Shown: positions 17,088 through 61,696 of the stretch, piece after piece
Layout of the letters: each line of letters opens with the position of its first letter
Numbering within the stretch: the stretch's first letter is position 1
Assembly: GCA_027488255.1 (NCBI GenBank)
Contig: JAIYBZ010000037.1
Span: 124,001 to 188,000 of the forward strand
Source: Comamonadaceae bacterium
GTDB taxonomy: Bacteria; Pseudomonadota; Gammaproteobacteria; Burkholderiales; Burkholderiaceae_C
Direction of reading: 5' to 3'
Length of the DNA stretch: 64,000 nucleotides
The notes under the pieces: model-generated
The model's database searches: none
Told to the model about the DNA's origin: nothing
What the model saw: only the letters and a program-made list of their open reading frames with translations
Made by a program: the position numbers and the translations under genes

Positions 17088-17813
17088 ATGAGCCTCTCGC
17101 CCAACCCACAGTCTCTGCGTGCACGCGCGTATGAAAATTTTCGACAGCAAATTTTGCAGGCGAATGTGCAGCCGGGCCAATTTGTTTCACAACGCGAGTT
17201 GATGCAATTGTTGGACATGCCGCTGGGCGCGGTGCGTGAGTTGATTCCGCGACTAGAGGCCGAAGGCCTGCTGCGCACGGTGCCGCAACGCGGCTTGCAA
17301 ATCGCCCATGTTGACCTGAAGCTCATCCACAACGCCTTTCAACTCCGGGCCATGCTTGAGCGCGAAGCAGCGTTGCATTTTGTCGAGTCGGTGAGCGATG
17401 CCGATTTGAACAACATCGAACAAGCCCATTTGCACATCGTGCACACCGCGCGGCAAGGGCGCATCACCGACGAGTTGCTCACCGAGGCCACTTCGGTTGA
17501 TTGGGGCTTGCACGATTTGATGATCGACACCTTGGGCAACGAGCTCATCTCGCAGACCTACCGCATCAACAGCCTGCGGGTGCGATTGATTCACTTAGAG
17601 CGTTCGACCTTGTCGGCCGAAGTGCTGCTGCCAGCCATGCAAGAACACTTGAATTTGATCGCAGCCCTGAAAGCCCGCGATGCACAAGCGGTGGCCCAGC
17701 ATGTGGCGTTTCACATCCACAGCGCCCACCAAAGGGTGCTGGGGCAAGACCGTCGCGTGCTCAACACGCCGGCCACCTTTGAATTTTCTTCATCTTTGAC
17801 GGAGCTCACTTGA
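17088..17813 (+). CDS. GntR-family regulator, FadR (FCD) subfamily
   Basis: A 241-residue transcription factor. The N-terminal winged helix-turn-helix (about residues 8-70) has FRQQILQANVQPGQFVSQRELMQLL and GAVRELIPRLEAEGLLRTVPQRGLQI, the usual GntR pattern. The C-terminal all-helical FCD ligand domain begins near DLKLIHNAFQLRAMLE, where conserved Asp and His residues bind a metal and a small acid or sugar acid. It lies inside the island and probably represses it through the palindrome at 16625. The stop overlaps the TTG start of the next gene. Confidence 0.9.
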   Translation: MSLSPNPQSLRARAYENFRQQILQANVQPGQFVSQRELMQLLDMPLGAVRELIPRLEAEGLLRTVPQRGLQIAHVDLKLIHNAFQLRAMLEREAALHFVESVSDADLNNIEQAHLHIVHTARQGRITDELLTEATSVDWGLHDLMIDTLGNELISQTYRINSLRVRLIHLERSTLSAEVLLPAMQEHLNLIAALKARDAQAVAQHVAFHIHSAHQRVLGQDRRVLNTPATFEFSSSLTELT

Positions 17814-36279: not shown

Positions 36280-36567
36280 TCAAGGTTTGCGGGGCAGGGG
36301 TGCAGGGGCCGCAGCGGGTGAAGACGCTTCAGAGGCAGCCGGCGCTGCGGCGGCAGAGGCCTCGGCGGCGGCCCGCTCGGCGGCCATGCGCTGCTCGGCC
36401 ACAGCGGGGCTTTCTATTTTCAGGGCATCGGGCCGGATTTGTTGCGACAGGCGTTCGGGTTCGCGTGCCGTGTTGGGCCCATAACCCCATGAGGCAAAAG
36501 CGTCCCACTGCCACGCCAGCGTGAGCGCATTCAGCACCAACAAAAGAGCCAAGATCCATCGCATCAT
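36280..36567 (-). CDS. Hypothetical membrane-anchored Ala/Pro-rich protein
   Basis: Not recognised. The 95 residues consist of one N-terminal membrane helix (MRWILALLLVLNALTLAWQW), a short middle (RPDALKIESPAVAEQRMAAERAAAE), and an Ala/Ser/Pro-rich tail ending PLPRKP. It looks like an inner-membrane-anchored periplasmic peptide. The start overlaps the birA stop (ATGA), so it is translationally coupled to birA. The tail resembles a truncated linker that in related proteins may lead to a further domain; I cannot confirm that. Confidence 0.6.
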   Translation of the reverse strand: MMRWILALLLVLNALTLAWQWDAFASWGYGPNTAREPERLSQQIRPDALKIESPAVAEQRMAAERAAAEASAAAAPAASEASSPAAAPAPLPRKP

Positions 36568-37355
36568 TGAATTCGATCCTCTAATTGATCTGCTGTGGGA
36601 AAAGGCCGCACGCTGACTTCAGCGCTGTTGATCGCTTGCAGTCCCGCCTCGGTTTGCAGTTGAAACTCGCCATTTTCGCCAACCCCTGCGGTCCAACCCT
36701 CCCGGCCATCGCTGGTGTGCACGCGCCGGCCCTTGAGCACATCGCGCTCGGAAAATCGTTTTTGCAGCGGTGCAAAGCCTTGCCGCTCAAACGCCAAAAG
36801 CGTCTGAACCAAGGGCAAAGCCACCGCGGCCAAGCAAGAGGCCGCGCTCAGTTCGGGGCGCAATTCGGTCAGCGCTGCCGGCGGCGTGTTCAGTCCCTCA
36901 GCAGGCCGAGGCCGGATGTTCAGGCCCACCCCCACCACCACTTGGCTGTGCTCGCCCATGCTGGCGGCTTCGATCAATATGCCCCCCAGCTTGCGGTCTT
37001 CCCACCACAAATCATTGGGCCATTTCAGGCCAATTTGTGGGTGCAGGCTTTCGGCCAGGCTGAGCCCCACGGCCAGCGACAGGCCCGACCAGTTGCGGGG
37101 TGACAGTGGCAGGCTGAGTGAAAAGGTCAAGGAGTCCCCGGCCTGGCTTTGCCAGACACGCCCCATACGGCCTCGCCCGGCGGTTTGGCGCTCGGCCACC
37201 AGCAGGGTGGGTTCGGTTTGCCCTGCGCGCGCGCGGCGCATGAGCTCGCTGTTGCTCGAGTCAATCTCGGGCAAGACCTCCACCGTGAAGTGGGGCAACA
37301 GCGGGAATATTTGCTCCCAAACGGCTTCAGAAGGCCAAGCGGTGGGGGCGTTCAT
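36564..37355 (-). CDS. birA: Biotin--[acetyl-CoA-carboxylase] ligase
   Basis: Attaches biotin to the BCCP subunit of acetyl-CoA carboxylase by way of biotinyl-AMP. The 263 residues lack the N-terminal helix-turn-helix of E. coli BirA, so this is a type I, enzyme-only ligase. Motifs are EIDSSNSELMRRA, the adenylate-binding AERQTAGRGRMGRVW, SLSLPL, and the catalytic LKWPNDLWWEDRKLGGILIEA. It lies 16 bp downstream of the SET-domain gene on the same strand and is coupled to the small hypothetical gene. Confidence 0.92.
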   Translation of the reverse strand: MNAPTAWPSEAVWEQIFPLLPHFTVEVLPEIDSSNSELMRRARAGQTEPTLLVAERQTAGRGRMGRVWQSQAGDSLTFSLSLPLSPRNWSGLSLAVGLSLAESLHPQIGLKWPNDLWWEDRKLGGILIEAASMGEHSQVVVGVGLNIRPRPAEGLNTPPAALTELRPELSAASCLAAVALPLVQTLLAFERQGFAPLQKRFSERDVLKGRRVHTSDGREGWTAGVGENGEFQLQTEAGLQAINSAEVSVRPFPTADQLEDRIQ

Positions 37356-37371: not shown

Positions 37372-38118
37372 TCAGCGGGTACGGGCCTTCGAGCCCTTGG
37401 ACGATTGGCTTATGGCATCCGCTTGGGTTTTGTCGCCGTCCTTTTGCTTGTCCTTGGCCTTGGCCTTAGCTTTGGCCTTGTCCTTGGTCTTTGAATCGGC
37501 CTTGGCTTTGTCTTTCTTTTTGGCCTTCACCTTCGCATCGGCTTTTTTCTCGGCCTTGGCCTGGGTCTCTGCCTTGGCTTTGGCTTTGGCTTTTTTCTGG
37601 CTGGGGATTTTGGGTGTGTCTTCGCGGTCTTTCGGCGACAACAAGGTGCCACGGCAGTTGGCGCTGCCGCACCAGCAGGGGTATTCGGCCTTCAGCTTCT
37701 TGGTGTAGGGCTCGTCAATGATCAAGCCGTAGTCGTAGCTCAACTCTTCACCCGCTTTGATGTTGCGCAGGGCCTTGATGAAAATGCGGTCGTTCACTTC
37801 ATCGGCTTCGCAGTTGGGGTTGCAGCTGTGGTTGATCCAGCGTGACGAGTTGCCGCCGTGCAATGCGTCAATGACCCGGTCTTCGTTCACATGGAAGTAA
37901 AAGGTGTGGTTCGGGTCGTTCGGGTCGTGCGGGTGGCGATCTTGGGCTTCGTCCCAAGTGATCACTTCGCCAACGTACTCGATCAAGGTCTCGCCTTCAG
38001 CCAAGTCTTGCAACGCAAAAACGCCCTTGCCGTGCACGCCCGAGCGTCTGACTTGAATGCGTTTGCCGGAGGCGATGGGGGTGACGGCGTTGGGAGAAAA
38101 AACGGAGGTTTTGGCCAC
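37372..38118 (-). CDS. SET-domain protein-lysine methyltransferase with histone-H1-like tail
   Basis: A 248-residue protein. Residues about 18-135 are a SET domain: RRSGVHGKGVFA, then RWINHSCNPNCEA (SAM-site and pseudoknot, residues 93-105), then EELSYDYG with the catalytic Tyr at about 128-130. Post-SET cysteines CWCGSANC (148-155) with C103 complete the zinc site. From residue 171 to the end it is a low-complexity Lys/Ala/Asp tail with many KAKA-type repeats, like a histone H1 tail. The start is GTG (38118); an in-frame TAA lies upstream. It is divergent from topB, which also has a Lys/Ala-rich segment. Substrate unknown; self, the TopB linker or a histone-like protein are candidates. Confidence 0.88.
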   Translation of the reverse strand: MAKTSVFSPNAVTPIASGKRIQVRRSGVHGKGVFALQDLAEGETLIEYVGEVITWDEAQDRHPHDPNDPNHTFYFHVNEDRVIDALHGGNSSRWINHSCNPNCEADEVNDRIFIKALRNIKAGEELSYDYGLIIDEPYTKKLKAEYPCWCGSANCRGTLLSPKDREDTPKIPSQKKAKAKAKAETQAKAEKKADAKVKAKKKDKAKADSKTKDKAKAKAKAKDKQKDGDKTQADAISQSSKGSKARTR

Positions 38119-38152
38119 AGCGTAAAAAATTTGTTATGGTGAATTCATGTGG

Positions 38153-38191
38153 GCGTGCGCGCGAGCGTGCCCGGGCGCGTGCGCACACGCG
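38153..38191. other. Alternating purine-pyrimidine GC tract upstream of topB
   Basis: The 93-bp gap between the SET gene and topB holds 38153-38163 (11 bases) and 38175-38191 (17 bases) of strictly alternating purine-pyrimidine sequence, nearly all GC/GT/GCAC steps and including the self-complementary GTGCGCAC. Such tracts can flip to Z-DNA or extrude under negative supercoiling. Position before a topoisomerase gene makes supercoil-sensing plausible. Confidence 0.45.
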
Positions 38192-38211
38192 AGACAACGG
38201 ATTGTAATGAC

Positions 38212-41130
38212 ATGAAGACATTGGTAATTGCAGAGAAGCCTTCAGTGGCTCAAGACATCGTCAAAGCATTGACGCCGACCTCCGGCAAATTCGACAAACA
38301 CGATGACCATTTTGAGAACGACAAATATGTCGTGACCAGCGCCGTGGGGCACTTGGTCGAGATCCAAGCCCCCGAGGCCTACGACGTGAAGCGTGGCAAG
38401 TGGAGCTTTGCCAACTTGCCAGTCATTCCGCCGCACTTTGAGCTGAAACCTGTCGACAAAACCAAGAGCCGCCTGAGTGCGGTGGTGAAACAGGCCAAGC
38501 GCAAAGATGTCAGCGCCTTGATCAACGCCTGCGACGCGGGCCGCGAGGGCGAGTTGATCTTTCGCTTGATCGAACAATACGCGGGTGGCAGCAAGGGCCT
38601 GGACAAACCGGTGCAGCGCCTGTGGTTGCAGTCGATGACGCCGCAAGCCATTCGCGACGGCTTTGAGCACTTGCGCAGCAACCAGCAGATGCAAGGTTTG
38701 GCCGATGCGGCACGCAGCCGCTCGGAGGCCGATTGGCTGGTGGGCATCAATGGCACCCGTGCCATGACGGCCTTTAACTCGCGCGACGGCGGCTTTTTCT
38801 TGACCACAGTCGGGCGGGTGCAAACGCCCACGTTGGCGGTGGTGGTGGAGCGCGAAGAACAAATCCGCAAGTTTGTCAGCCGCGACTATTGGGAGATCCA
38901 TGCCGAGTTCGCAGCCGCTGCCGGCACTTATCCCGGCAAATGGTTTGACCCCGCTTGGAAGAAAGAAGAAGACGGTGAAAAGAAGGCCGACCGCAAGTGG
39001 TCTGCCGCCGAGGCCCAAGCCATTGTGGAGGCTGTGCGTGGCAAAACCGCCAGCGTGACCGAAGAAGCCACGCCCACCACGCAAGCCAGCCCGGGCTTGT
39101 TTGACCTGACCAGTTTGCAGCGCGAGGCCAACAGCAAGTTTGGTTTTTCGGCCAAGACCACCTTGGCCTTGGCGCAAAGTCTCTACGAGCGTCACAAGGC
39201 CCTGACCTATCCGCGAACCGATTCGCGCCACCTGCCCGAAGACTACGTGCCGGTGGCCAAGCAGACTTTTGAAATGTTGGCCGACAGCGGCATGAAGCAT
39301 TTGGCGCCCCATGCCCTGACAGCGTTGAACAACAGCTACGTGCGCAAAATCCCGCGCGTCTTCGACAACAAAAAAGTCTCAGACCACTTTGCCATCATCC
39401 CTACACTGCAAGCCCCCAGCGGCTTGTCCGAGGCCGAGCAAAAACTCTACGACTTGGTGGTGCGCCGTTTCATGGCCGTGTTCTTCCCCAGCGCCGAGTA
39501 CCAGGTGACCACCCGCATCAGCGTGGCGGCGGGCCACAGCTTCAAAACTGTGGGCAAAGTCTTGGTGAAACCCGGTTGGCTGGCTATTTACGGCAAAGAA
39601 GCGGCAGAAGAAGTGGCCGATGCCAAAGACGGTGACAAGGGACAAAACCTGGTGCCTGTGCAAGCGGGTGAAAAGGTCGGCGTGGAATCCGTCGAGGCCA
39701 AAGGTCTGAAAACGCGCCCGCCCGCACGCTACTCAGAAGCCACCTTGTTGGGCGCCATGGAAGGCGCAGGCAAGATGGTGGACGACGACGAATTGCGTGA
39801 AGCCATGCAAGAAAAAGGGCTGGGCACACCCGCCACACGCGCCGCCATCATTGAAGGGTTGATCAACGAGAAATACATGCTGCGCGAAGGCCGCGAGATG
39901 ATCCCGACCGCCAAGGCCTTTCAGTTGATGACGCTGTTGCGCGGCTTGCAAGTGGAAGAACTCTCCAAGCCCGAATTGACAGGGGAGTGGGAGTACAAGC
40001 TGGCCCAAATGGAGCAAGGCAAATTGAGCCGTGCCACCTTCATGGCCGAAATTGCCGCCATGACCGAGCACATCGTCAAGAAGGCCAAAGAGTACGACCG
40101 CGACACGGTGCCGGGCGACTACGCCACCTTGGCGGCGCCTTGCCCCAACTGTGGTGGCGTGGTCAAAGAAAACTACCGCCGCTACGCTTGCACGGGCGCG
40201 CAGGGCGCTTCCGAAGGCTGTGGTTTTTCGTTTGGCAAATCGCCTGCCGGCCGCACCTTTGAGCCCGCTGAAGTCGAGCAATTCATGCGCGACAAGAAGA
40301 TTGGTCCCTTGGACGGTTTCCGCTCCAAAGCCGGCTGGCCCTTCGTGGCTGAAATGGCGTTGAAGTACAACGAAGAAGAGAAAAACTGGAAGCTCGAATT
40401 CGACTTTGGCGACGACAAGAAAAACGACGACAGCGGCGAGATTGTCGAGCTGAGCGACGAGGCGTTGGGCGCTTGCCCCAAGTGCGGCAGCCCGGTGCAC
40501 GAGCATGGCAGCAACTACGTTTGCAGCAAAGCCGTGCCCACCCATGCCCAGGCCACCCCCAGCTGCGATTTCAAGACCGGCAAAATCATCTTGCAGCAAT
40601 CGGTGGAGCGGGAACAAATGGTGAAACTGCTGACCGCTGGCAAGACCGATTTGCTCGACAAATTCATCAGCAACCGCACACGCCGCAGCTTCAAGGCCAT
40701 GCTGGCATGGAACCCCGAAGAAGGCAAAGTGACGTTTGAGTTTGAGCAGCGCGAGGGGGGCAAAAAGTACCCTTCGCGCAAAACCGCCGCCAAGAAAACC
40801 CCATTCGGCAAAGTGGCTGCCAAGAAAACAGCTGCGGCCAAAACCCCTGCCGCCAAAAAAGCCGCCAAAGTGGCTGCGCCCAAAGCCCCGCGCAAGGCGG
40901 CTGTGGGCACCTTGAAGCCCAGTGCCGCATTGGCCGCTGTCATTGGCGACGGCACGTACGCACGCACCGAAGTGGTGAAAAAAATCTGGGACTACATCAA
41001 GGCCAACAACTTGCAAGACCCGGCGGACAAACGCGCCATCAAAGCCGATGCCAAGTTGCAGGCCGTGTTTGGCAAAGAACAAGCCACCATGTTTGAGTTG
41101 GCCGGGATCATTGGGAAACACCTGAGCTGA
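38212..41130 (+). CDS. topB: DNA topoisomerase III with C-terminal Lys/Ala linker and SWIB domain
   Basis: Type IA topoisomerase of 972 residues, much longer than E. coli TopB (653). The Toprim domain is at 1 to about 145 (VIAEKPSVAQDIVKAL, INACDAGREGELIFRLI), the active Tyr is at about 333 in LTYPRTDSRHLPED, and two C4 zinc-ribbon regions lie at about 644-675 (CPNCGGVV) and 755-790 (CPKCGSPV). Residues about 850-896 are a Lys/Ala/Pro-rich linker (KKTAAAKTPAAKKAAK). Residues about 898-972 are a SWIB/MDM2 domain (TEVVKKIWDYIKANNLQDP and KLQAVFGKEQATMFEL). The start at MKTLVIAEKPS is standard. It is divergent from the SET gene. Confidence 0.94.
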   Translation: MKTLVIAEKPSVAQDIVKALTPTSGKFDKHDDHFENDKYVVTSAVGHLVEIQAPEAYDVKRGKWSFANLPVIPPHFELKPVDKTKSRLSAVVKQAKRKDVSALINACDAGREGELIFRLIEQYAGGSKGLDKPVQRLWLQSMTPQAIRDGFEHLRSNQQMQGLADAARSRSEADWLVGINGTRAMTAFNSRDGGFFLTTVGRVQTPTLAVVVEREEQIRKFVSRDYWEIHAEFAAAAGTYPGKWFDPAWKKEEDGEKKADRKWSAAEAQAIVEAVRGKTASVTEEATPTTQASPGLFDLTSLQREANSKFGFSAKTTLALAQSLYERHKALTYPRTDSRHLPEDYVPVAKQTFEMLADSGMKHLAPHALTALNNSYVRKIPRVFDNKKVSDHFAIIPTLQAPSGLSEAEQKLYDLVVRRFMAVFFPSAEYQVTTRISVAAGHSFKTVGKVLVKPGWLAIYGKEAAEEVADAKDGDKGQNLVPVQAGEKVGVESVEAKGLKTRPPARYSEATLLGAMEGAGKMVDDDELREAMQEKGLGTPATRAAIIEGLINEKYMLREGREMIPTAKAFQLMTLLRGLQVEELSKPELTGEWEYKLAQMEQGKLSRATFMAEIAAMTEHIVKKAKEYDRDTVPGDYATLAAPCPNCGGVVKENYRRYACTGAQGASEGCGFSFGKSPAGRTFEPAEVEQFMRDKKIGPLDGFRSKAGWPFVAEMALKYNEEEKNWKLEFDFGDDKKNDDSGEIVELSDEALGACPKCGSPVHEHGSNYVCSKAVPTHAQATPSCDFKTGKIILQQSVEREQMVKLLTAGKTDLLDKFISNRTRRSFKAMLAWNPEEGKVTFEFEQREGGKKYPSRKTAAKKTPFGKVAAKKTAAAKTPAAKKAAKVAAPKAPRKAAVGTLKPSAALAAVIGDGTYARTEVVKKIWDYIKANNLQDPADKRAIKADAKLQAVFGKEQATMFELAGIIGKHLS

Positions 41131-43118: not shown

Positions 43119-44906
43119 CTAAGGTCTGCAGCGGCGGTAACTGTCGGCCAAGGCTTGGAAGCCGAGCTTGCGGGTGCGCTTGTCTTCGGCAATCACCCCT
43201 TTTCTGTTGAAGCCGCCATTGAAGACTGTGTGTCTGCGCTCAGAGCGAAAGTCGTAAAGCAGCCAAGGTGCAATGCCACAAATGAAGGGTTTGCTGGCAC
43301 TGATGCGCACCTGCTCACTCAGGATGCGGGCTTGGCACTCTTCGGTGAACAACTCGTCTTCGCGCCCATGGTGTCCAGCTTGGGCATCGGCACCGGTCTC
43401 GGTGATCAGCACCGGCCGGTCGGGCTTGGAGTTGTCCAAGAGACGTTGTAGCCCTTCAAAGCCCGGCTCATACCAGCCAAAGTATTCGTTGATGCCGATC
43501 ACATCCAGGTACTGCGTCAATCGGTCTTCAATGCGAAAGTGTTCTCGGTTGATCAAACAGGCGGCACTGATGAGTCGGCTCGAGTCCCATGCCCGCGCTG
43601 ACTCTGCCAGTGTGCGCATGAAGCTCAGGCGCTCATCGCTGTCTTCGTTTTCGTTGCCCACGCCCCAAAAAATCACGCTGGCGCGGTTGTGGTCTCGCAA
43701 GATCAATTCATGAAGCTGATTGCGGGCATCGGCCAAGGTGCGGGGATTGCCAAAGTCAATGGCCCAATAAACCGGGATTTCTTCCCACAACAGCATGCCC
43801 ACCTCATCGGCAATGCGGGCCACGTGTTCATGGTGTGGATAGTGCGACAGCCGCAAGAAATTGCAGCCCATGGCCCGAGCGTCTTCAAAGCGTTGCCGAA
43901 CATCGGCCTCGGTCGACACCTTGCCCAGATGCAGGTCGTCTTCATGCACACAGATCCCGCGCAAGAACAGCGGGCGACCATTCAGAAGAATCTGTGTCCC
44001 TGAAACGGCAATGTGGCGCAGACCGATTCGATCTTCCAAATGGTCGTCGCCGCACTCAAAACGCACGCTGTAGAGATGTGGATCTTCGGGGCACCACAAA
44101 CGAGGATGACAGGCCACACGGGCTTCGCCCTCGCCACCCTGCACGGCGATCGTCACCTGCAGGTTTAAGGCTTCAATGTGGCACTGCGCTTGCGTGTCCA
44201 CCGCTTCACTCAGCCGGATGCGAACGCGCAAGCCTTGCTCAGGCGTCCAATCCACTTGGGTGTTGCGAATATGGACAGCCGGCAATCGCAGCACATCGAC
44301 CTCGCGGTAAATGCCGCCATGGTTGAACCAATCAAAGTGCCGCATTGGCACACGCTCAAGTTCACGCCGATTGTCGACTTGGATTTGCAGACGATTGGGA
44401 CCTTCTTGCAGTCCAGCACTCAGGTCCAAACAAAATGGCGTTGAACCGCCAAGGTGTGTGCCCATAAACTGGCCATTGAGAAAGATGCGCGATTGGTAGT
44501 TGGCCGCGCCAACGCGCAGGACCGTGACCGGACGCTGTGGATCAGGCACATGATCAATCACACGGGTGTACCACCCGCCGCCCTCAAAATGCAGCCACTC
44601 TGGCTTGTGCATGGACCAGTTGCTGGGCAGCTCAAGGGTCTGTCCGGCGTAGGGGTCGTAATCCTGGGGATGGGTCCACGCGCCCGGAGGTGCTGGTTCC
44701 AGCTTGAACCATTTTTGCCGCAACCCCTCATCAAAGAGATCCAGCGTGAAGTGCCATGCACCGTTCAGACTGGTGCGAGGCCGCTCACCCAGCGCGACCA
44801 GGGTGTTTGCCTCAATTCGGGGGGTGTCGTATGCCGCACTGTAGCTTTCGTCATGCAGGTGGTGGAAGGGGTCTTTCGGCGTGTCGGGTTTCGCGATGTC
44901 GGTCAT
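43119..44906 (-). CDS. Glycoside hydrolase family 2 (beta-glucuronidase/beta-galactosidase type)
   Basis: A 595-residue retaining glycosidase without a signal peptide, so it acts in the cytoplasm on imported glycosides. The N-terminal sugar-binding jelly-roll contains LELPSNWSM and WYTRVIDH, NHGGIYREVDVL is the typical GH2 stretch, and the barrel has the acid/base Glu in FWGVGNENEDS and the nucleophile Glu in VLITETGADAQ. The sugar cannot be decided from sequence. The start at 44906 overlaps the stop of the preceding gene (ATGA). It is the last gene of the ABC operon. Confidence 0.88.
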   Translation of the reverse strand: MTDIAKPDTPKDPFHHLHDESYSAAYDTPRIEANTLVALGERPRTSLNGAWHFTLDLFDEGLRQKWFKLEPAPPGAWTHPQDYDPYAGQTLELPSNWSMHKPEWLHFEGGGWYTRVIDHVPDPQRPVTVLRVGAANYQSRIFLNGQFMGTHLGGSTPFCLDLSAGLQEGPNRLQIQVDNRRELERVPMRHFDWFNHGGIYREVDVLRLPAVHIRNTQVDWTPEQGLRVRIRLSEAVDTQAQCHIEALNLQVTIAVQGGEGEARVACHPRLWCPEDPHLYSVRFECGDDHLEDRIGLRHIAVSGTQILLNGRPLFLRGICVHEDDLHLGKVSTEADVRQRFEDARAMGCNFLRLSHYPHHEHVARIADEVGMLLWEEIPVYWAIDFGNPRTLADARNQLHELILRDHNRASVIFWGVGNENEDSDERLSFMRTLAESARAWDSSRLISAACLINREHFRIEDRLTQYLDVIGINEYFGWYEPGFEGLQRLLDNSKPDRPVLITETGADAQAGHHGREDELFTEECQARILSEQVRISASKPFICGIAPWLLYDFRSERRHTVFNGGFNRKGVIAEDKRTRKLGFQALADSYRRCRP

Positions 44907-46090
44907 TCTGAAGATCCACAAGATGAAGGGGCCATGGCGTAGCCGATACCGATCATGCGTCGAAAACGCCAGTTGCCCTCAAAGGCTTGCCAGTGGGGCC
45001 AGAGGCAGCGTGCCGTCATGGCAATTGCAATCCACCGGAACCAAGTGGAAAAAGTGTTCGACAGACCCTGTGGCTCAGCATAGCCGCCGACCCACCCATC
45101 TTGTTTGCGCACGCCTTGGCTGGCCTGTGCCGGTTCATCAGGGAAGCCGCCATCTTCTGCTTGCAGGGCCAGCAATGCCACCAGCAATTGCCGCAGCCAA
45201 GCCTCAATCTCTGTTCTGCGGTAGTTCAAACAAGCATGGCCATGGATCAAAAGGTCGACCAGATCGACGTCGATGCAGGCACTGTGGATGGTGGCTGGGC
45301 GAGACAGTGCGTAATCGATGGCACGCTCTTGGTAGTTGAGGCGTCGGCCCGTGACGTACCAAAGGTGGTAGTTGTGCATAGAGCCTGCCATAGCATGCAG
45401 CAAAGCTGTCTCGTCGTGGGCCTGACCCACGCCCCAAAAACCGGTGGAGGGCTCTTGTAAGCGGTCATGCCAAGCGAAGAGCAACTCTAAGGCCTGCTGG
45501 GCGGAGGCTTTGTCACCTTGCTCGGACAAGCCCAACAGGAAGCTGCCCAAGTTCACGATGTTGTTGCCTTCTTGCCAAGGGTCGCGCAAGTCGCGTTCAC
45601 TCAGCCAAGCCTTGAGGTGCGTGGGGTCAAGGAAAGGGCGTGCAAACGCCAAAACCGCAGGCCGTTCAGGGCACAGCGCCTGCACAGCGCCCTGACTGTA
45701 GTTGCTCACATGAAAATCGATGTATTCCCAGGTGTCACGCAACAGAGGTTTTTTGTAGACAGCGTCGTCGGACATGCCCGGAATGCGAAAGATGCCATCC
45801 GCCCTGCGGTGGCTCTCTAGCCAATTTGCCAGCGATTGCCGTTGTTCCTCTGTCCAGCCCGTCAAGTCGCCCAGAAGATCGCGCAAGATCACGGCGTTGT
45901 AGGTGCCGGGCAACAACATGCCGGGCCAGCGAAGGGGGTCTTGTGCGGCGCTGATGCGACTGACGCCTAGCGGCAGTCCTGGCGCTTTTAGGCTGGACAG
46001 CCAGTGCAGGCTGCGGCGGCGTGCTGAGACGATGCCAGATTGCAATGCCAGGTCGGCTGTGGAGCGTTCAAGCGGGCTCATGCTTGTCAT
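44903..46090 (-). CDS. Unrecognised protein with alpha/alpha-toroid (QW-like) repeats
   Basis: No named family recognised. The 395 residues are helical with repeated motifs of the kind found in alpha/alpha-toroid proteins (prenyltransferase or terpene-cyclase repeats and six-hairpin glycosidases): WLESHRRADGIFRIPG, LQEPSTGFWGVG, and LLALQAEDGGFPDEP. There is no signal peptide. It sits between the ABC permease (3 bp upstream) and the GH2 glycosidase (4-bp overlap), so it belongs to the same sugar operon; a glycosidase, lyase or sugar epimerase-like function is inferred. A Met three codons downstream is an alternative start. Confidence 0.7.
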   Translation of the reverse strand: MTSMSPLERSTADLALQSGIVSARRRSLHWLSSLKAPGLPLGVSRISAAQDPLRWPGMLLPGTYNAVILRDLLGDLTGWTEEQRQSLANWLESHRRADGIFRIPGMSDDAVYKKPLLRDTWEYIDFHVSNYSQGAVQALCPERPAVLAFARPFLDPTHLKAWLSERDLRDPWQEGNNIVNLGSFLLGLSEQGDKASAQQALELLFAWHDRLQEPSTGFWGVGQAHDETALLHAMAGSMHNYHLWYVTGRRLNYQERAIDYALSRPATIHSACIDVDLVDLLIHGHACLNYRRTEIEAWLRQLLVALLALQAEDGGFPDEPAQASQGVRKQDGWVGGYAEPQGLSNTFSTWFRWIAIAMTARCLWPHWQAFEGNWRFRRMIGIGYAMAPSSCGSSE

Positions 46091-46093
46091 CCA

Positions 46094-46930
46094 TCACCCT
46101 TTCACTGCGCCTGCGGTCATGCCGGTCATCACACGGCGCTGGGTTAAGAGGAAGAAAAAGATCACGGGCAAAGTGGTCAAGGCGGACAGGGCCATGATGC
46201 CTTGGAAGTTCACGCCCAGTTCGCCGTTGAGGTTCATCAGCGCCACGGGCAATGTGTAGGTGGCTGGCGACTTGGAGACCACCAGCACGGGCAACCATTG
46301 CGACCAATTCAGCAGAAAGGTGATGATCGAAGCCGTCGCTACCGCCGGGGCGGCCATGGGCATGACCACTTGAAACAGGATCTGCCGCTCGGTGGCCCCG
46401 TCCACGACTGCCGCCTCCAAAACCGAACGCGGCAATGTGCGGAAAAATTGCTCGAACAAAAAAAACTGGATCGGACCCACGGCCAAGAAAAGCACGATAC
46501 CTGCATAACTGCCCAGCAAGCCAATTTTGTACATCACCAAGTACACCGGGATCACCAGCAACATGTAGGGATACATGATCGTGGCCATAAACCCCATGCG
46601 CAGAGCCTTGAAGAGCCAAAAGTCAGGCCGGCGTACCAAGGCGTAGGCGCCCAGCGCGGTGATCAACACGCTGAGCATCGTGGAGGCCGTGGTGATCAAC
46701 ACCGAGTTGCTGGCATAGACCCAAAGCGGTGTCCCCCCAATTTGGGCCAAATCAGAAAAGACGGCGAGAGAAAAACTCTCGGGCCAAGGGTGCAACGGTG
46801 ATGCCAAGATGGCCTTGCTGGTGCGGAATGCACTGACCACCATCCAGAAGAAGGGGTAGAGGCAAATCAGACTCACCAAGATGGCCGTGGCATAGGCCAA
46901 TACTTTGAGCAACAGCGACTCGCGGCGCAT
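46094..46930 (-). CDS. Carbohydrate ABC transporter permease, MalG-like
   Basis: Inner-membrane subunit of a CUT1 sugar importer (278 residues, six helices). It starts MRRESLLLKVLAYATAILVSLICLYPFFWMVVSAF, and the coupling-helix EAA loop is EAAVVDGATERQILFQVVMPMAAPA. The C-terminal half has the expected NWSQWLPVLVVS. The start is the ATG 2 bases after the preceding permease stop; an open frame further upstream is not used. Confidence 0.92.
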   Translation of the reverse strand: MRRESLLLKVLAYATAILVSLICLYPFFWMVVSAFRTSKAILASPLHPWPESFSLAVFSDLAQIGGTPLWVYASNSVLITTASTMLSVLITALGAYALVRRPDFWLFKALRMGFMATIMYPYMLLVIPVYLVMYKIGLLGSYAGIVLFLAVGPIQFFLFEQFFRTLPRSVLEAAVVDGATERQILFQVVMPMAAPAVATASIITFLLNWSQWLPVLVVSKSPATYTLPVALMNLNGELGVNFQGIMALSALTTLPVIFFFLLTQRRVMTGMTAGAVKG

Positions 46931-46932
46931 CG

Positions 46933-47832
46933 TCACCGCCCCCCCTGAGATTGCAGTCGCATGGCTACCCAAGCCAACAGCAGAACCAGCGCAAAAAGCA
47001 CTGTCGCCATGGCCGTCGCCTCGCCGTAGCGACCTTGGTCGAAAAGTTGATACGCGTAGTAGCTGATGAAATTTGTACTCTCGTTGGGGCCGCCCTTGGT
47101 CATCACCGCCACCACTGTGAAGGTCTTGAGGTATTGGATCAATGCATACACCGTGTTGACCAAAAGTGCGGGACGCAGTTGGGGCAACAGCACATGCCAA
47201 AAATGCTGCCATGCGTTCGCGCCGTCAATTTGAGCGGCTTCGCTTTGCCCTTTGTCACACAGCGCCAAGTTGGCCAAAAAAATAATCACATAGAAGCCAA
47301 CGTGGTGCCACAACTCGGCAATCAGCACAGCACTCAACACGGTCGAGACCGAAGCGATGCCTCCAAACACGGGCAATCCCAGTGCCTCAAGGGCGGTGTT
47401 GATGGCGCCAAAGCTTTGGTCAAACAGCCAGCGCCAGACCACATAGCCGGCAATATCGGGCGCCACCACAGGCATGAAGATGGCCACCTTAAAAAACAAC
47501 TTGCCGCGGCCCAGCCATTGGGAATGCAGCAGCATCGCGTAAAGCAAAGCGCAGGCAATGGTGCTTACCACCGCAAGCCCGGTGTAAAGCAGCGTTCGGC
47601 CCAAAGACTTCATGAACACCGGATCTGCCCACAAGGACAGGTAATTGGCCCAACCCACCCACTTGGCTTGGGCCTGCAAGGCACTGGAAGACTCGGTGAA
47701 AGAAGTCTGAATCGCCAGAGCGATGGGCCAGACACCAAAGACCATGGTCAACAAGGCAAAGGGCGCGATGAACCACCAGAACACCCCGATCGGGAGAGAC
47801 TCTTTGCGGTAGAACCGACCGTCCATCAGCAT
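46933..47832 (-). CDS. Carbohydrate ABC transporter permease, MalF/UgpA-like
   Basis: Companion CUT1 permease (299 residues, six helices), with FIAPFALLTMVFGVWPIALAIQTSF at the N-terminus and the EAA loop EAAQIDGANAWQHFWHVLLPQLRPALL. GGPNESTNFISYYAYQLF is the conserved stretch before the last helix. Two ATG codons are possible: 47832, with a GGGGGA stretch 3 bases ahead, or 47826, which overlaps the ATPase stop as TGATG. Confidence 0.91.
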   Translation of the reverse strand: MLMDGRFYRKESLPIGVFWWFIAPFALLTMVFGVWPIALAIQTSFTESSSALQAQAKWVGWANYLSLWADPVFMKSLGRTLLYTGLAVVSTIACALLYAMLLHSQWLGRGKLFFKVAIFMPVVAPDIAGYVVWRWLFDQSFGAINTALEALGLPVFGGIASVSTVLSAVLIAELWHHVGFYVIIFLANLALCDKGQSEAAQIDGANAWQHFWHVLLPQLRPALLVNTVYALIQYLKTFTVVAVMTKGGPNESTNFISYYAYQLFDQGRYGEATAMATVLFALVLLLAWVAMRLQSQGGR

Positions 47833-60311: not shown

Positions 60312-61696
60312 ACGATTCCACCCTCTACGCCCAACGCCGCGCCCGTCTTGCCGCCCAATTGGGCGCAGGCGGCATTGCCATCATTCCCACTGCACCCGAG
60401 CGTCCGCGCAACCGCGACAGCGATTACCTGTACCGGCACGACAGTTACTTTTATTACCTGACCGGATTCAGCGAGCCGCAGGCCACGCTGGTGATCACCG
60501 CCGATGGCGAAACCACCTTGTTTTGCCAGCCTAAAGACAAAGAGCGTGAAATTTGGGACGGCATCCGCTTGGGCCCCGATGCCGCGCCAGCCGCCTTGGG
60601 CGTGAGTCGGGCTTTCTCGTCCACAGAATTGGCCACGCACATGCCCAAGCTGCTGGAAAACCGCAGCACGGTCTGGTACCCATTTGCCATTCACTCGGGC
60701 TTGGAGTCGCGCATCGATGGCTGGTTGCAGTCGGTGCGCGCACGCGTGCGCTATGGGGCTTTGTGCCCCGACCAACAACGCGACTTGTGCAGCCTGCTCG
60801 ATGAAATGCGTTTGGTCAAAGACGCGCACGAGCAAGACATCATGCGGCGCGCCAGTGCCATCAGTGCGCGTGCGCACATTCGGGCCATGCAGCGCAGTGC
60901 CGCCATGTTGCGCGCTGGACAAGAGGTGCGCGAGTACCACCTCGATGCCGAGTTGTTGCACGAGTTCCGTCAGCACGGTTCGCAATACCCCGCCTATGGC
61001 TCCATCGTCGCCGGCGGCGCCAATGCCTGTGTGTTGCATTACCGCGCCGACAAGGCCCTGATTCGCGATGGCGACTTGGTGTTGATCGATGCGGGGTGCG
61101 AGTTGGACGGCTATGCCAGCGACATCACGCGCACCTTTCCAGCCAACGGCCGCTTCACCGGGCCGCAGCGCGCGTTGTACGACTTGGTGTTGGCATCGCA
61201 AGACGCTGCCGTGGCGGCGACCCATGCCGGCGCCCGTTTTGTGGGCCCGCACGAGGCCGCTGTGGCGGTGCTCGCGCAGGGCATGCTCGATGTGGGATTG
61301 CTCGACGCCAACCAAGTTGGCAATGCCCAAGATGTGATTGAAAACCGCAGTTACTTTCAGTTTTACATGCACCGCACGGGCCACTGGTTGGGCATGGATG
61401 TGCACGATTGCGGCAGCTATGTTGAGCCCTCGCAAGTGGGGCAGATCAGCGAGCGCCGTGACCCTTTGAGTGGCGAGACCATCAAAGACCGCCCCAGCCG
61501 TATTTTGCAAGCGGGCATGGTCTTGACCCTCGAGCCTGGGGTGTATGTGCGTCCTGCCGCGGGCGTGCCGGAAAAGTTTCACAACATCGGCATTCGCATC
61601 GAAGACGACGCCATCGTGACCGCCACCGGCTGCGAGCTGATCACGCGGGGCGTGCCCGTCAAGGCCGATGAAATAGAAGCCTTGATGAAGGGCTGA
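60308..61696 (+). CDS. pepP: Xaa-Pro aminopeptidase (aminopeptidase P)
   Basis: A metallopeptidase (462 residues) that removes the N-terminal residue before proline. The AMP_N domain contains RDSDYLYRHDSYFYYLTGFSEP. The pita-bread catalytic domain has metal ligands in LIDAGCELDGYASDITRTFP (two Asp), HRTGHWLGMDVHD (His), LEPGVYV (Glu) and IGIRIEDDA (Glu). It is translationally coupled to murU by a 4-bp overlap and is followed after 3 bp by the MOSC gene. Confidence 0.94.
   Translation: MNDSTLYAQRRARLAAQLGAGGIAIIPTAPERPRNRDSDYLYRHDSYFYYLTGFSEPQATLVITADGETTLFCQPKDKEREIWDGIRLGPDAAPAALGVSRAFSSTELATHMPKLLENRSTVWYPFAIHSGLESRIDGWLQSVRARVRYGALCPDQQRDLCSLLDEMRLVKDAHEQDIMRRASAISARAHIRAMQRSAAMLRAGQEVREYHLDAELLHEFRQHGSQYPAYGSIVAGGANACVLHYRADKALIRDGDLVLIDAGCELDGYASDITRTFPANGRFTGPQRALYDLVLASQDAAVAATHAGARFVGPHEAAVAVLAQGMLDVGLLDANQVGNAQDVIENRSYFQFYMHRTGHWLGMDVHDCGSYVEPSQVGQISERRDPLSGETIKDRPSRILQAGMVLTLEPGVYVRPAAGVPEKFHNIGIRIEDDAIVTATGCELITRGVPVKADEIEALMKG

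What the first reader, a model, noticed from the sequence alone, without database searches (positions are those of the whole stretch)
37372..41130. SET methyltransferase facing a SWIB-tailed topoisomerase III: a chromatin-like gene pair in a bacterium
Divergent neighbours separated by 93 bp encode a SET-domain lysine methyltransferase with a Lys/Ala-rich histone-H1-like tail (residues 171-248) and a TopB that ends in a Lys/Ala/Pro-rich linker (about 850-896) and a SWIB domain (about 898-972). SET and SWIB are typical of eukaryotic chromatin. The best-known bacterial parallel is Chlamydia, where a SWIB domain is fused to topoisomerase I and a SET protein methylates histone-H1-like Hc1. Seeing both features in one divergent locus suggests a dedicated module in which lysines of the AK-rich tails (TopB linker, the enzyme itself, or a histone-H1-like protein encoded elsewhere) are methylated to tune DNA binding or topology. 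Domain calls are read from the sequence; the functional link is inference.
Basis: partly seen in the sequence, partly recalled or inferred. Interest (0 to 1): 0.8.

Follow-up and report, generated by a model that had tools for sequence, protein, structure and literature searches.

The report
Methylase-topoisomerase pair with Z-prone promoter
In a large family of freshwater and soil bacteria, a histone-methylase-like gene sits head-to-head with a DNA-untwisting-enzyme gene that often carries a chromatin-type domain, and the short stretch between them usually holds a DNA sequence prone to flip into left-handed form, so the pair may sense and tune DNA twisting.

Summary
Observation confirmed: a SET methyltransferase (Pfam 1.2e-25, intact motifs, Lys-rich tail) lies 93 bp from a divergent TopB with AK-rich linker and SWIB domain (6.5e-26), in a Limnohabitans genome (Comamonadaceae). 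The pair is family-wide: SET is divergent from topB in 111 of 114 genomes listed for both genes (the other 3 topB lie at contig ends) and in 80 of 80 named loci. The link is SET-topB rather than SET-SWIB: SWIB-less TopB keep the pair; the simplest count gives one SWIB gain and five losses; the SET Lys tail is a recurrent late addition. SET and SWIB do co-occur across the order (odds ratio 12) and H1-like HC2 proteins over cut-off are absent from 13 SET-less genomes (83 of 207 with SET); neither test is tree-corrected. New: the SET-topB gap usually holds a long alternating purine-pyrimidine (Z-DNA-prone) tract: runs of 20 nt or more number 54 in 12.5 kb of gaps, 0 in 1.23 Mb of flanks; in 32 of 36 genomes picked for long tracts it is the only run of 28 nt or more found. 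In this window the tract is short (17 nt) and unexceptional. Methylation of AK tails and Z-DNA formation remain inference.

The parts
37372..38118 (-). SET-domain protein lysine methyltransferase, 248 aa, GTG start
   Evidence: Pfam SET 1.2e-25; nearest solved chains by sequence KMT2A/MLL1, 8.8e-25
37726..38031 (-). SET domain with NHSCxPN and GEELxYDYG motifs
   Evidence: match place; conserved columns
37645..37677 (-). post-SET cysteine motif CxCGxxxCRGT
   Evidence: direct reading; cysteines invariant in the alignments
37375..37632 (-). Lys/Ala-rich C-terminal tail of SET, variable in the family
38119..38211 (.). 93-bp shared intergenic region
38132..38140 (+). TGTTATGGT, extended -10-like motif pointing to topB (inferred promoter element)
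   Evidence: TGnTAnnnT found upstream of ATTGTA in 87 of the 123 loci that have ATTGTA; weak -35 signal at spacer 16; the simple sigma-70 scan found no promoter in 37900-38400
38175..38191 (.). 17-nt perfect alternating purine-pyrimidine tract, the short local form of the tract that is long in much of the family
38201..38206 (.). ATTGTA motif (TACAAT on the SET strand), conserved; possible -10 of SET (inferred)
   Evidence: 123 of 141 loci, about 4 in shuffles; -35 support weak
38212..41130 (+). topB, DNA topoisomerase III with C-terminal SWIB, 972 aa
40738..40911 (+). Lys/Ala/Pro-rich (histone-H1-like) linker of TopB
   Evidence: direct reading; weak HC2 hit; Lys/Ala-rich tails also in the 54 SWIB-less TopB read
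40912..41124 (+). SWIB domain of TopB
   Evidence: nearest solved chain by sequence UAF30, 5.9e-14
36564..37355 (-). birA, biotin-protein ligase, 16 bp after SET, same strand (conserved neighbour)
   Evidence: on the SET strand within 492 bp of the SET match in 141 of 141 SET loci

Best explanation
A family-wide (Comamonadaceae) locus birA-SET-|-topB in which an active-type SET lysine methyltransferase and DNA topoisomerase III share one divergent control region. Most likely the SET enzyme methylates lysines in the AK-rich, H1-like basic tails of nucleoid proteins (the HC2-type H1-like protein, the solo AK-SWIB protein, the TopB tail), lowering or reshaping their DNA binding, while TopB resolves topological problems on the same DNA; SWIB, added later to TopB, is a docking domain to that nucleoprotein. 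In much of the family the shared promoter carries a Z-DNA-prone tract that would flip when divergent transcription and cell-wide negative supercoiling are high, tying expression of both genes to DNA topology. Shown: gene order, domains, conservation, tract. Inferred: substrate, SWIB docking, promoter positions, Z-DNA formation and its regulatory effect.
For: SET has the catalytic and post-SET motifs and by sequence is nearest to KMT2-type histone methylases. Divergent SET-topB in 111 of 114 family genomes listed for both and 80 of 80 named loci. Outside the family SET lies within 20 kb of topB in 15 of 72 SET-bearing genomes of six families, in differing orientation; only 24 of the 72 have both genes on one contig. 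SET and SWIB co-occur: 63 of 81 SET genomes versus 49 of 219 others; by taxonomic family 17 both, 6 SET only, 4 SWIB only. HC2 over cut-off in 83 of 207 SET genomes, 0 of 13 SET-less; among genomes of 3.1 Mb or less and at least 90% complete 15 of 25 versus 0 of 10. AK tails on TopB, solo SWIB, HC2-type protein. Alternating tract: at least 14 nt in 124 of 141 SET loci, median 24-25 versus about 10 expected; runs of 20 nt or more 54 in 12.5 kb versus 0 in 1.234 Mb; in 32 of 36 genomes picked for long tracts all 28-nt matches fall in it; alternation z 3.7 under a dinucleotide model versus -0.5 for RNA folding.
Against: No methylation or Z-DNA datum. AK tails of TopB persist in SET-less genomes (G429, G336, G370, G471). 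birA, with no obvious topological role, shares the synteny, so gene order may simply be inherited. Co-occurrence tests are not tree-corrected; independent-pair tests on the tree were uninformative. HC2 is a low-complexity model, and some of its weaker hits are TopB tails. 17 of 141 SET loci have no run of 14 nt. In the window itself the tract is 17 nt and two 18-nt runs lie elsewhere in the 64 kb. The z-scores were taken on windows centred on the longest run, which favours alternation.
Confidence: 0.42

Rival explanations
1. Inherited synteny without functional link: birA, SET and topB simply stayed together in Comamonadaceae; SET methylates something unrelated (for instance a ribosomal protein or translation factor).
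For: birA shares the block in 141 of 141 SET loci; where SET is missing, birA and topB still face each other (5 loci; at least 4 changes of SET presence on the tree); outside the family 9 of the 24 SET genomes with both genes on one contig have them more than 20 kb apart.
Against: Nearness of SET and topB recurs in six other families with other orientations; SET co-occurs with SWIB; KMT2-like sequence.
Confidence: 0.33
2. Dedicated SET-SWIB module as first read: SET methylates the TopB linker (or itself) and SWIB reads it.
For: SET tails with 10 or more Lys: 26 of 85 SWIB-bearing loci versus 1 of 48 SWIB-less ones; 13 tail gains on SWIB-bearing branches versus 1, crude p 0.024.
Against: Pair conserved without SWIB in 50 loci; SWIB kept without SET in G324 and G445; tails variable; independent pairs not significant.
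Confidence: 0.12
3. SET is an exported effector aimed at histones of protist grazers or hosts, like LegAS4/NUE-type proteins.
For: SET domain matches the LegAS4 model weakly (41.6 bits, cut-off 550); related Burkholderia and Bordetella proteins have been described as effectors (PMC3980110, passages).
Against: Far below the equivalog cut-off; a SET match in 207 of 220 genomes of a largely free-living family (lifestyle recalled); housekeeping neighbourhood. Secretion signals were not tested.
Confidence: 0.08
4. The alternating tract is not a Z-DNA element but a site for a protein, an RNA hairpin of the leader, or a mutational microsatellite.
For: Tracts are G+C-rich and partly self-complementary; RNA folding z -1.9 against mononucleotide shuffles; conserved motifs flank them.
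Against: Alternation exceeds folding once dinucleotides are kept; tracts are mixed, longest single-dinucleotide run median 6 nt, about 20% of the tract; sequences differ between genera while alternation stays.
Confidence: 0.3

Closest known systems
Chlamydial TopA-SWIB (CtTopA), solo SWIB (CT460) and SET protein (NUE/cpnSET)
   Same: A type IA topoisomerase with C-terminal SWIB, a solo SWIB protein, a SET protein and Hc1/Hc2 histone-like proteins in one organism; a chromatin-like complex was proposed (PMC6426960, passages); cpnSET reported to methylate Hc1, NUE not (PMC3980110, passages).
   Different: Here topoisomerase III, not I; betaproteobacteria; SET and topB are neighbours sharing a control region; the fused SWIBs form one clade among the SWIBs compared (chlamydial SWIBs were not in that tree, so separate origin is likely but not shown). 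[quoted passage not shown]
NCBIfam NF011313 / PRK14724 DNA topoisomerase III (TopB+SWIB)
   Same: Same protein, 1930 bits over the full model.
   Different: The model names the enzyme only; nothing on SET, the shared promoter or the role of SWIB.
KMT2A/MLL1-type SET domains
   Same: Best solved-structure relatives by sequence, with post-SET.
   Different: Here a stand-alone 248-aa bacterial enzyme without the accessory domains of KMT2 proteins (those recalled).
Supercoiling-sensitive topoisomerase promoters (gyrA, gyrB, topA; recalled)
   Same: A topoisomerase gene whose promoter might respond to supercoiling.
   Different: Here a Z-prone alternating tract in a divergent promoter; [quoted passage not shown]

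Membership tests
SET-domain protein lysine methyltransferase | SET profile above curated cut-off | tested here: met
   90.4 bits versus 22.4
SET-domain protein lysine methyltransferase | SAM/catalytic motifs (GxG, NHSCxPN, GEELxxDY) and post-SET cysteines | tested here: met
   present, and invariant or nearly so (meaning of the motifs recalled)
SET-domain protein lysine methyltransferase | lysine methylation activity | not testable with these tools
   needs enzyme assay or proteomics
TopB + SWIB fusion (PRK14724) | full-length match over cut-off including SWIB | tested here: met
   1930 bits versus 1088, positions 2-988 of 988; SWIB 90.3 bits
Chlamydia-type SET/SWIB/histone chromatin system | SWIB fused to topoisomerase I (TopA) | tested here: not met
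   fused to topoisomerase III
Chlamydia-type SET/SWIB/histone chromatin system | histone-H1-like HC2 protein in the genome | tested here: met
   HC2 55.2 bits, cut-off 40, in the own genome; low-complexity model, so a compositional match
Chlamydia-type SET/SWIB/histone chromatin system | SET methylates the H1-like protein | not testable with these tools
   needs enzyme assay; reports for Chlamydia conflict (PMC3980110, passages)
LegAS4/AnkI-type exported SET effector | equivalog model over cut-off (NF043024) | tested here: not met
   41.6 bits versus 550
Z-DNA-forming regulatory element | long alternating purine-pyrimidine tract beyond expectation | tested here: met
   met for most of the family; in the window only 17 nt, not exceptional
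Z-DNA-forming regulatory element | B-Z transition in vivo and effect on transcription | not testable with these tools
   needs chemical probing and reporters

The most novel reading that the evidence does not exclude
In many Comamonadaceae the most Z-DNA-prone site of the chromosome is a topological sensor in the divergent promoter of topoisomerase III and a SET methyltransferase: negative supercoiling left behind by the two divergent transcripts flips the tract, which sets expression of both, and the methyltransferase then adjusts the DNA affinity of AK-rich H1-like proteins and of TopB. This would be a bacterial circuit joining DNA topology, Z-DNA and methylation of nucleoid proteins.
Probability: 0.25. 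Interest if true: 0.86.

Novelty: new variant of a known kind. Interest (0 to 1): 0.62.

Why it matters
Whether bacteria use lysine methylation to control nucleoid proteins, and whether Z-DNA has a natural regulatory role in bacteria, are open questions as far as I know (recalled). This locus offers one conserved, short system, found also in free-living strains, in which both can be tested with simple deletions and a promoter reporter. The SWIB-on-topo-III fusion also shows that SWIB-bearing type IA topoisomerases are not only chlamydial (the published claim concerns TopA).

Tried and rejected
1) SET-SWIB as the conserved unit: rejected, because the pair is kept in 50 SWIB-less loci. With the root set to SWIB-less, the count is 1 gain and 5 losses at equal costs and at gain costs 2 and 5; with losses costing twice a gain it is 7 gains and 2 losses, and at gain cost 5 a SWIB-bearing root would be cheaper. 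2) SET tail as a defining part: rejected (median 12 aa over 133 loci; 8 of 141 SET loci lacked the regular post-SET pattern and were dropped from the tail counts). 3) Tail-SWIB link on the tree: suggestive only; independent pairs gave no signal. 4) TopB AK tail depending on SET: not seen, SET-less genomes keep it. 5) SET-topB nearness beyond the order: of 74 class genomes outside the own family with SET I took the 44 best-scoring; none has a topB over the cut-off within 20 kb on one contig, and one (G738) has a below-cut-off topoisomerase hit about 17 kb away. In one search I left out topB hits under about 509 bits, except a split copy in G217. 6) The simple sigma-70 scan of 37900-38400 found nothing; -35 signals for the two inferred -10 motifs are weak. 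7) The AlphaFold model of SET had mean pLDDT 58 and was not used. 8) RNA-hairpin reading of the tract: weaker than alternation. 9) Tract upstream of topB or SET outside the family: none over 13 nt in the 350 bp upstream of the matches in 18 loci. 10) Plasmid TopB relatives: the 15 listed matches end at or before residue 857, i.e. before SWIB (5000-record limit reached, the rest not seen).
Full report
Identity and observation. The window lies in a 2.62-Mb, 38-contig genome. The closest named locus is Limnohabitans parvus II-B4 (SET 92% over residues 1-163); its contig length, 787537, equals that of contig C4 of G481, which is of the window's genus, so the genus is Limnohabitans. The SET ORF (37372-38118, -) and topB (38212-41130, +) are as reported, 93 bp apart. 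Pfam gives SET 1.2e-25 and, on TopB, Topoisom_bac, Toprim, two Toprim_Crpt stretches and SWIB 6.5e-26. NCBIfam NF011313, a TopB+SWIB model, matches over its full length. By sequence the SET is nearest to KMT2A/MLL1 among solved chains (8.8e-25) and the SWIB to UAF30 (5.9e-14). Catalytic and post-SET residues are conserved among the relatives aligned.

Other parts in the genome. There is a second SET ORF (173 aa, no Lys tail, right after an ORF that by eye is glmS-like), a solo SWIB protein with an AK-rich N-terminus (144 aa) and an HC2-type histone-H1-like protein (171 aa ORF, over the family cut-off).

Conservation of the pair. In 220 genomes of the family, 212 have a match over the cut-off of the TopB model (219 have any match, which may be topoisomerase I) and 207 have SET. 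The outputs list places in 150 genomes each; 114 genomes are in both lists; in 111 SET is divergent and directly upstream of topB, and in the other 3 topB starts within about 230 bases of a contig end, with SET on another contig. Of the 111, 82 have SWIB on TopB and 29 do not. In the separate named set 80 of 80 loci show the same arrangement (63 with a SWIB hit); some species are in both sets. I fetched 149 loci, to which the window adds one: 141 of the 150 carry SET, all 141 with topB on the opposite strand and birA on the SET strand within 492 bp of the SET match. In five SET-less loci where both are visible, birA and topB face each other directly.

Order of assembly. With topB of other families as outgroup and the root set to SWIB-less, SWIB was gained once (a 111-row clade) and lost five times at equal costs (other cost settings are told in Tried and rejected). 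The 96 fused SWIBs lie on one side of a branch (99*) against 28 solo SWIBs (few columns, few resolved forks). The 54 SWIB-less TopB read end in Lys/Ala-rich tails (at least 4 Lys, 13% Lys or more). Fused TopB-SWIB, judged by frame length, was seen only in the own family (8 of its 9 genomes) in a 300-genome sample of the order. Outside the family, SET lies within 20 kb of topB in 15 of 72 SET-bearing genomes from six families, or 15 of the 24 with both on one contig: convergent and adjacent in all 4 of one family, same strand 2.4 kb away in another, 5-17 kb in the rest. The simplest order is: AK tail and SET-topB nearness first, then the divergent pair, then SWIB, then Lys tails on SET.

SET tail. 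Tails with 10 or more Lys occur in 26 of 85 SWIB-bearing and 1 of 48 SWIB-less loci. Fitch counting on a midpoint-rooted tree gives 13 gains on SWIB-bearing and 1 on SWIB-less branches (crude p 0.024), but independent pairs are uninformative. I treat this as a hint only.

Co-occurrence. In the order sample 63 of 81 SET genomes have a SWIB, against 49 of 219 without SET (odds ratio 12; 10 without the own family). By taxonomic family: 17 both, 6 SET only, 4 SWIB only, 22-24 neither (p about 4e-5; the total number of families, 49-51, is inferred from the codes). HC2 over its cut-off: 83 genomes in the listed places (84 in the tally), all with SET, i.e. 83 of 207 against 0 of 13 SET-less; among genomes of 3.1 Mb or less and at least 90% complete 15 of 25 versus 0 of 10; by genus 12 of 18 versus 0 of 7. 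Two SET-less genomes (G384, G396) have a single weak HC2 match each (8.6e-6, 8.9e-8), the latter marked below cut-off. None of this is corrected for the tree; on the tree only 2-4 independent SET differences exist.

The Z-prone tract. The gap between the two genes often holds an unusually long run of perfect purine-pyrimidine alternation. In 141 SET loci the median longest run is 24 (SWIB) or 25 (no SWIB) nt against about 10 in Markov shuffles; 124 reach 14 nt, 95 reach 20, 48 reach 28, the longest is 56; 17 stay under 14. In the 80 named loci there are 54 runs of 20 nt or more in 12.5 kb of gap and none in 1.234 Mb of flanking DNA; the gap run is the longest of the locus or ties with it in 75 of 80, and in 39 of 40 loci longer than 20 kb; three loci have no gap run of 14 nt. 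I then searched 39 whole genomes, 36 chosen because their gap run was long and 3 of the own genus, for a 28-nt alternating pattern: 36 had matches, and in 32 of them the match counts in both phases are accounted for by the gap tract, so no other such run was found in the held genome; in G368, G133, G305 and G340 others exist (places were listed only for part of the genomes, the rest is deduced from counts). The tracts are mixed in sequence rather than simple repeats. Two motifs flank them: ATTGTA on the topB side (123 of 141, about 4 expected) and TGnTAnnnT on the SET side (87 of those 123; about 15 of 141 expected anywhere in shuffles). Read as -10 elements they would start both transcripts into the tract from opposite sides, but -35 support is weak. 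SET-less loci have shorter runs (11, 17, 17, 6, 6, from three genera; p 0.003 untreed), and no run over 13 nt lies within 350 bp upstream of the topB or SET matches in 18 loci of other families. In the own genus the run is only 17 nt (3 of 3 genomes), and in this window two 18-nt runs exist elsewhere, so the signal belongs to the family, not to this window.

Mechanism. Between divergently transcribed genes negative supercoils accumulate (twin-domain model, recalled), and alternating GC/GT runs of this length flip to Z-DNA near native superhelicity (recalled). A Z-prone run over the start sites of a topoisomerase gene would therefore be a plausible topology sensor or buffer. Betaproteobacteria are among the groups in which such patterns are most under-represented (PMC4060949, passages), which makes retention at one site more telling. 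The SET product, by motif and relatives, should be an active lysine methylase; AK-rich tails are the obvious substrate by analogy with cpnSET and Hc1 (PMC3980110, passages), an analogy weakened by the report there that NUE did not methylate Hc1.

Prior art. The idea that SET, SWIB and topoisomerase form a chromatin-like complex is in print for Chlamydiae (PMC6426960, passages). PMC12445093 (abstract and one section) describes SWIB on TopA as chlamydial. Searches for SWIB with topoisomerase III (none), SWIB with SET domain and topoisomerase (two papers), SET with betaproteobacteria and topoisomerase (none), SWIB with Chlamydia and topoisomerase (three), Z-DNA with topoisomerase and promoter (listings seen only, apart from PMC4060949), topB with Z-DNA and promoter (one review, three passages seen, none relevant) and lysine methylation with nucleoid proteins (listing only) showed no description of this pair or tract in the held library; most subscription papers are missing from it.

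Verdict. Observation confirmed; interpretation partly supported; a new variant of a known kind, with an unexpected promoter feature that is the best handle for a test.

Noticed in passing
L002 (G000:C7:37381-37686): Second SET protein of the same genome (173 aa, no Lys tail) directly after an ORF that by eye is glmS-like; role unknown.
   Followed up: partly
L004 (G000:C5:72311-72526): Solo SWIB protein with an AK-rich N-terminal tail; the same layout, with an AK part of very variable length, in the 9 family solos read.
   Followed up: partly
L319:1447-1962: HC2-type histone-H1-like protein (171 aa, largely AAKKP-like repeats) beside an ORF that by eye is nrdB-like (ribonucleotide reductase).
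   Followed up: partly
L008, L009, L012, L013, L017, L030: SET proteins of other families carry Lys-rich tails at the N- or C-terminus, so basic tails were probably added to SET several times.
   Followed up: no
window 17116-17133 and 60734-60751: Two other 18-nt perfect alternating purine-pyrimidine runs in the window; genes around them not examined.
   Followed up: no
L246, L288: Records titled Brevundimonas and Akkermansia hold Comamonadaceae-type SET-topB loci, most likely mislabelled or contaminated assemblies.
   Followed up: no
window 43119-47832: By eye, a GH2-type glycosidase-like ORF near ORFs resembling sugar ABC transporter permeases; a probable sugar-use cluster beside the acyl-CoA synthetase.
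   Followed up: no
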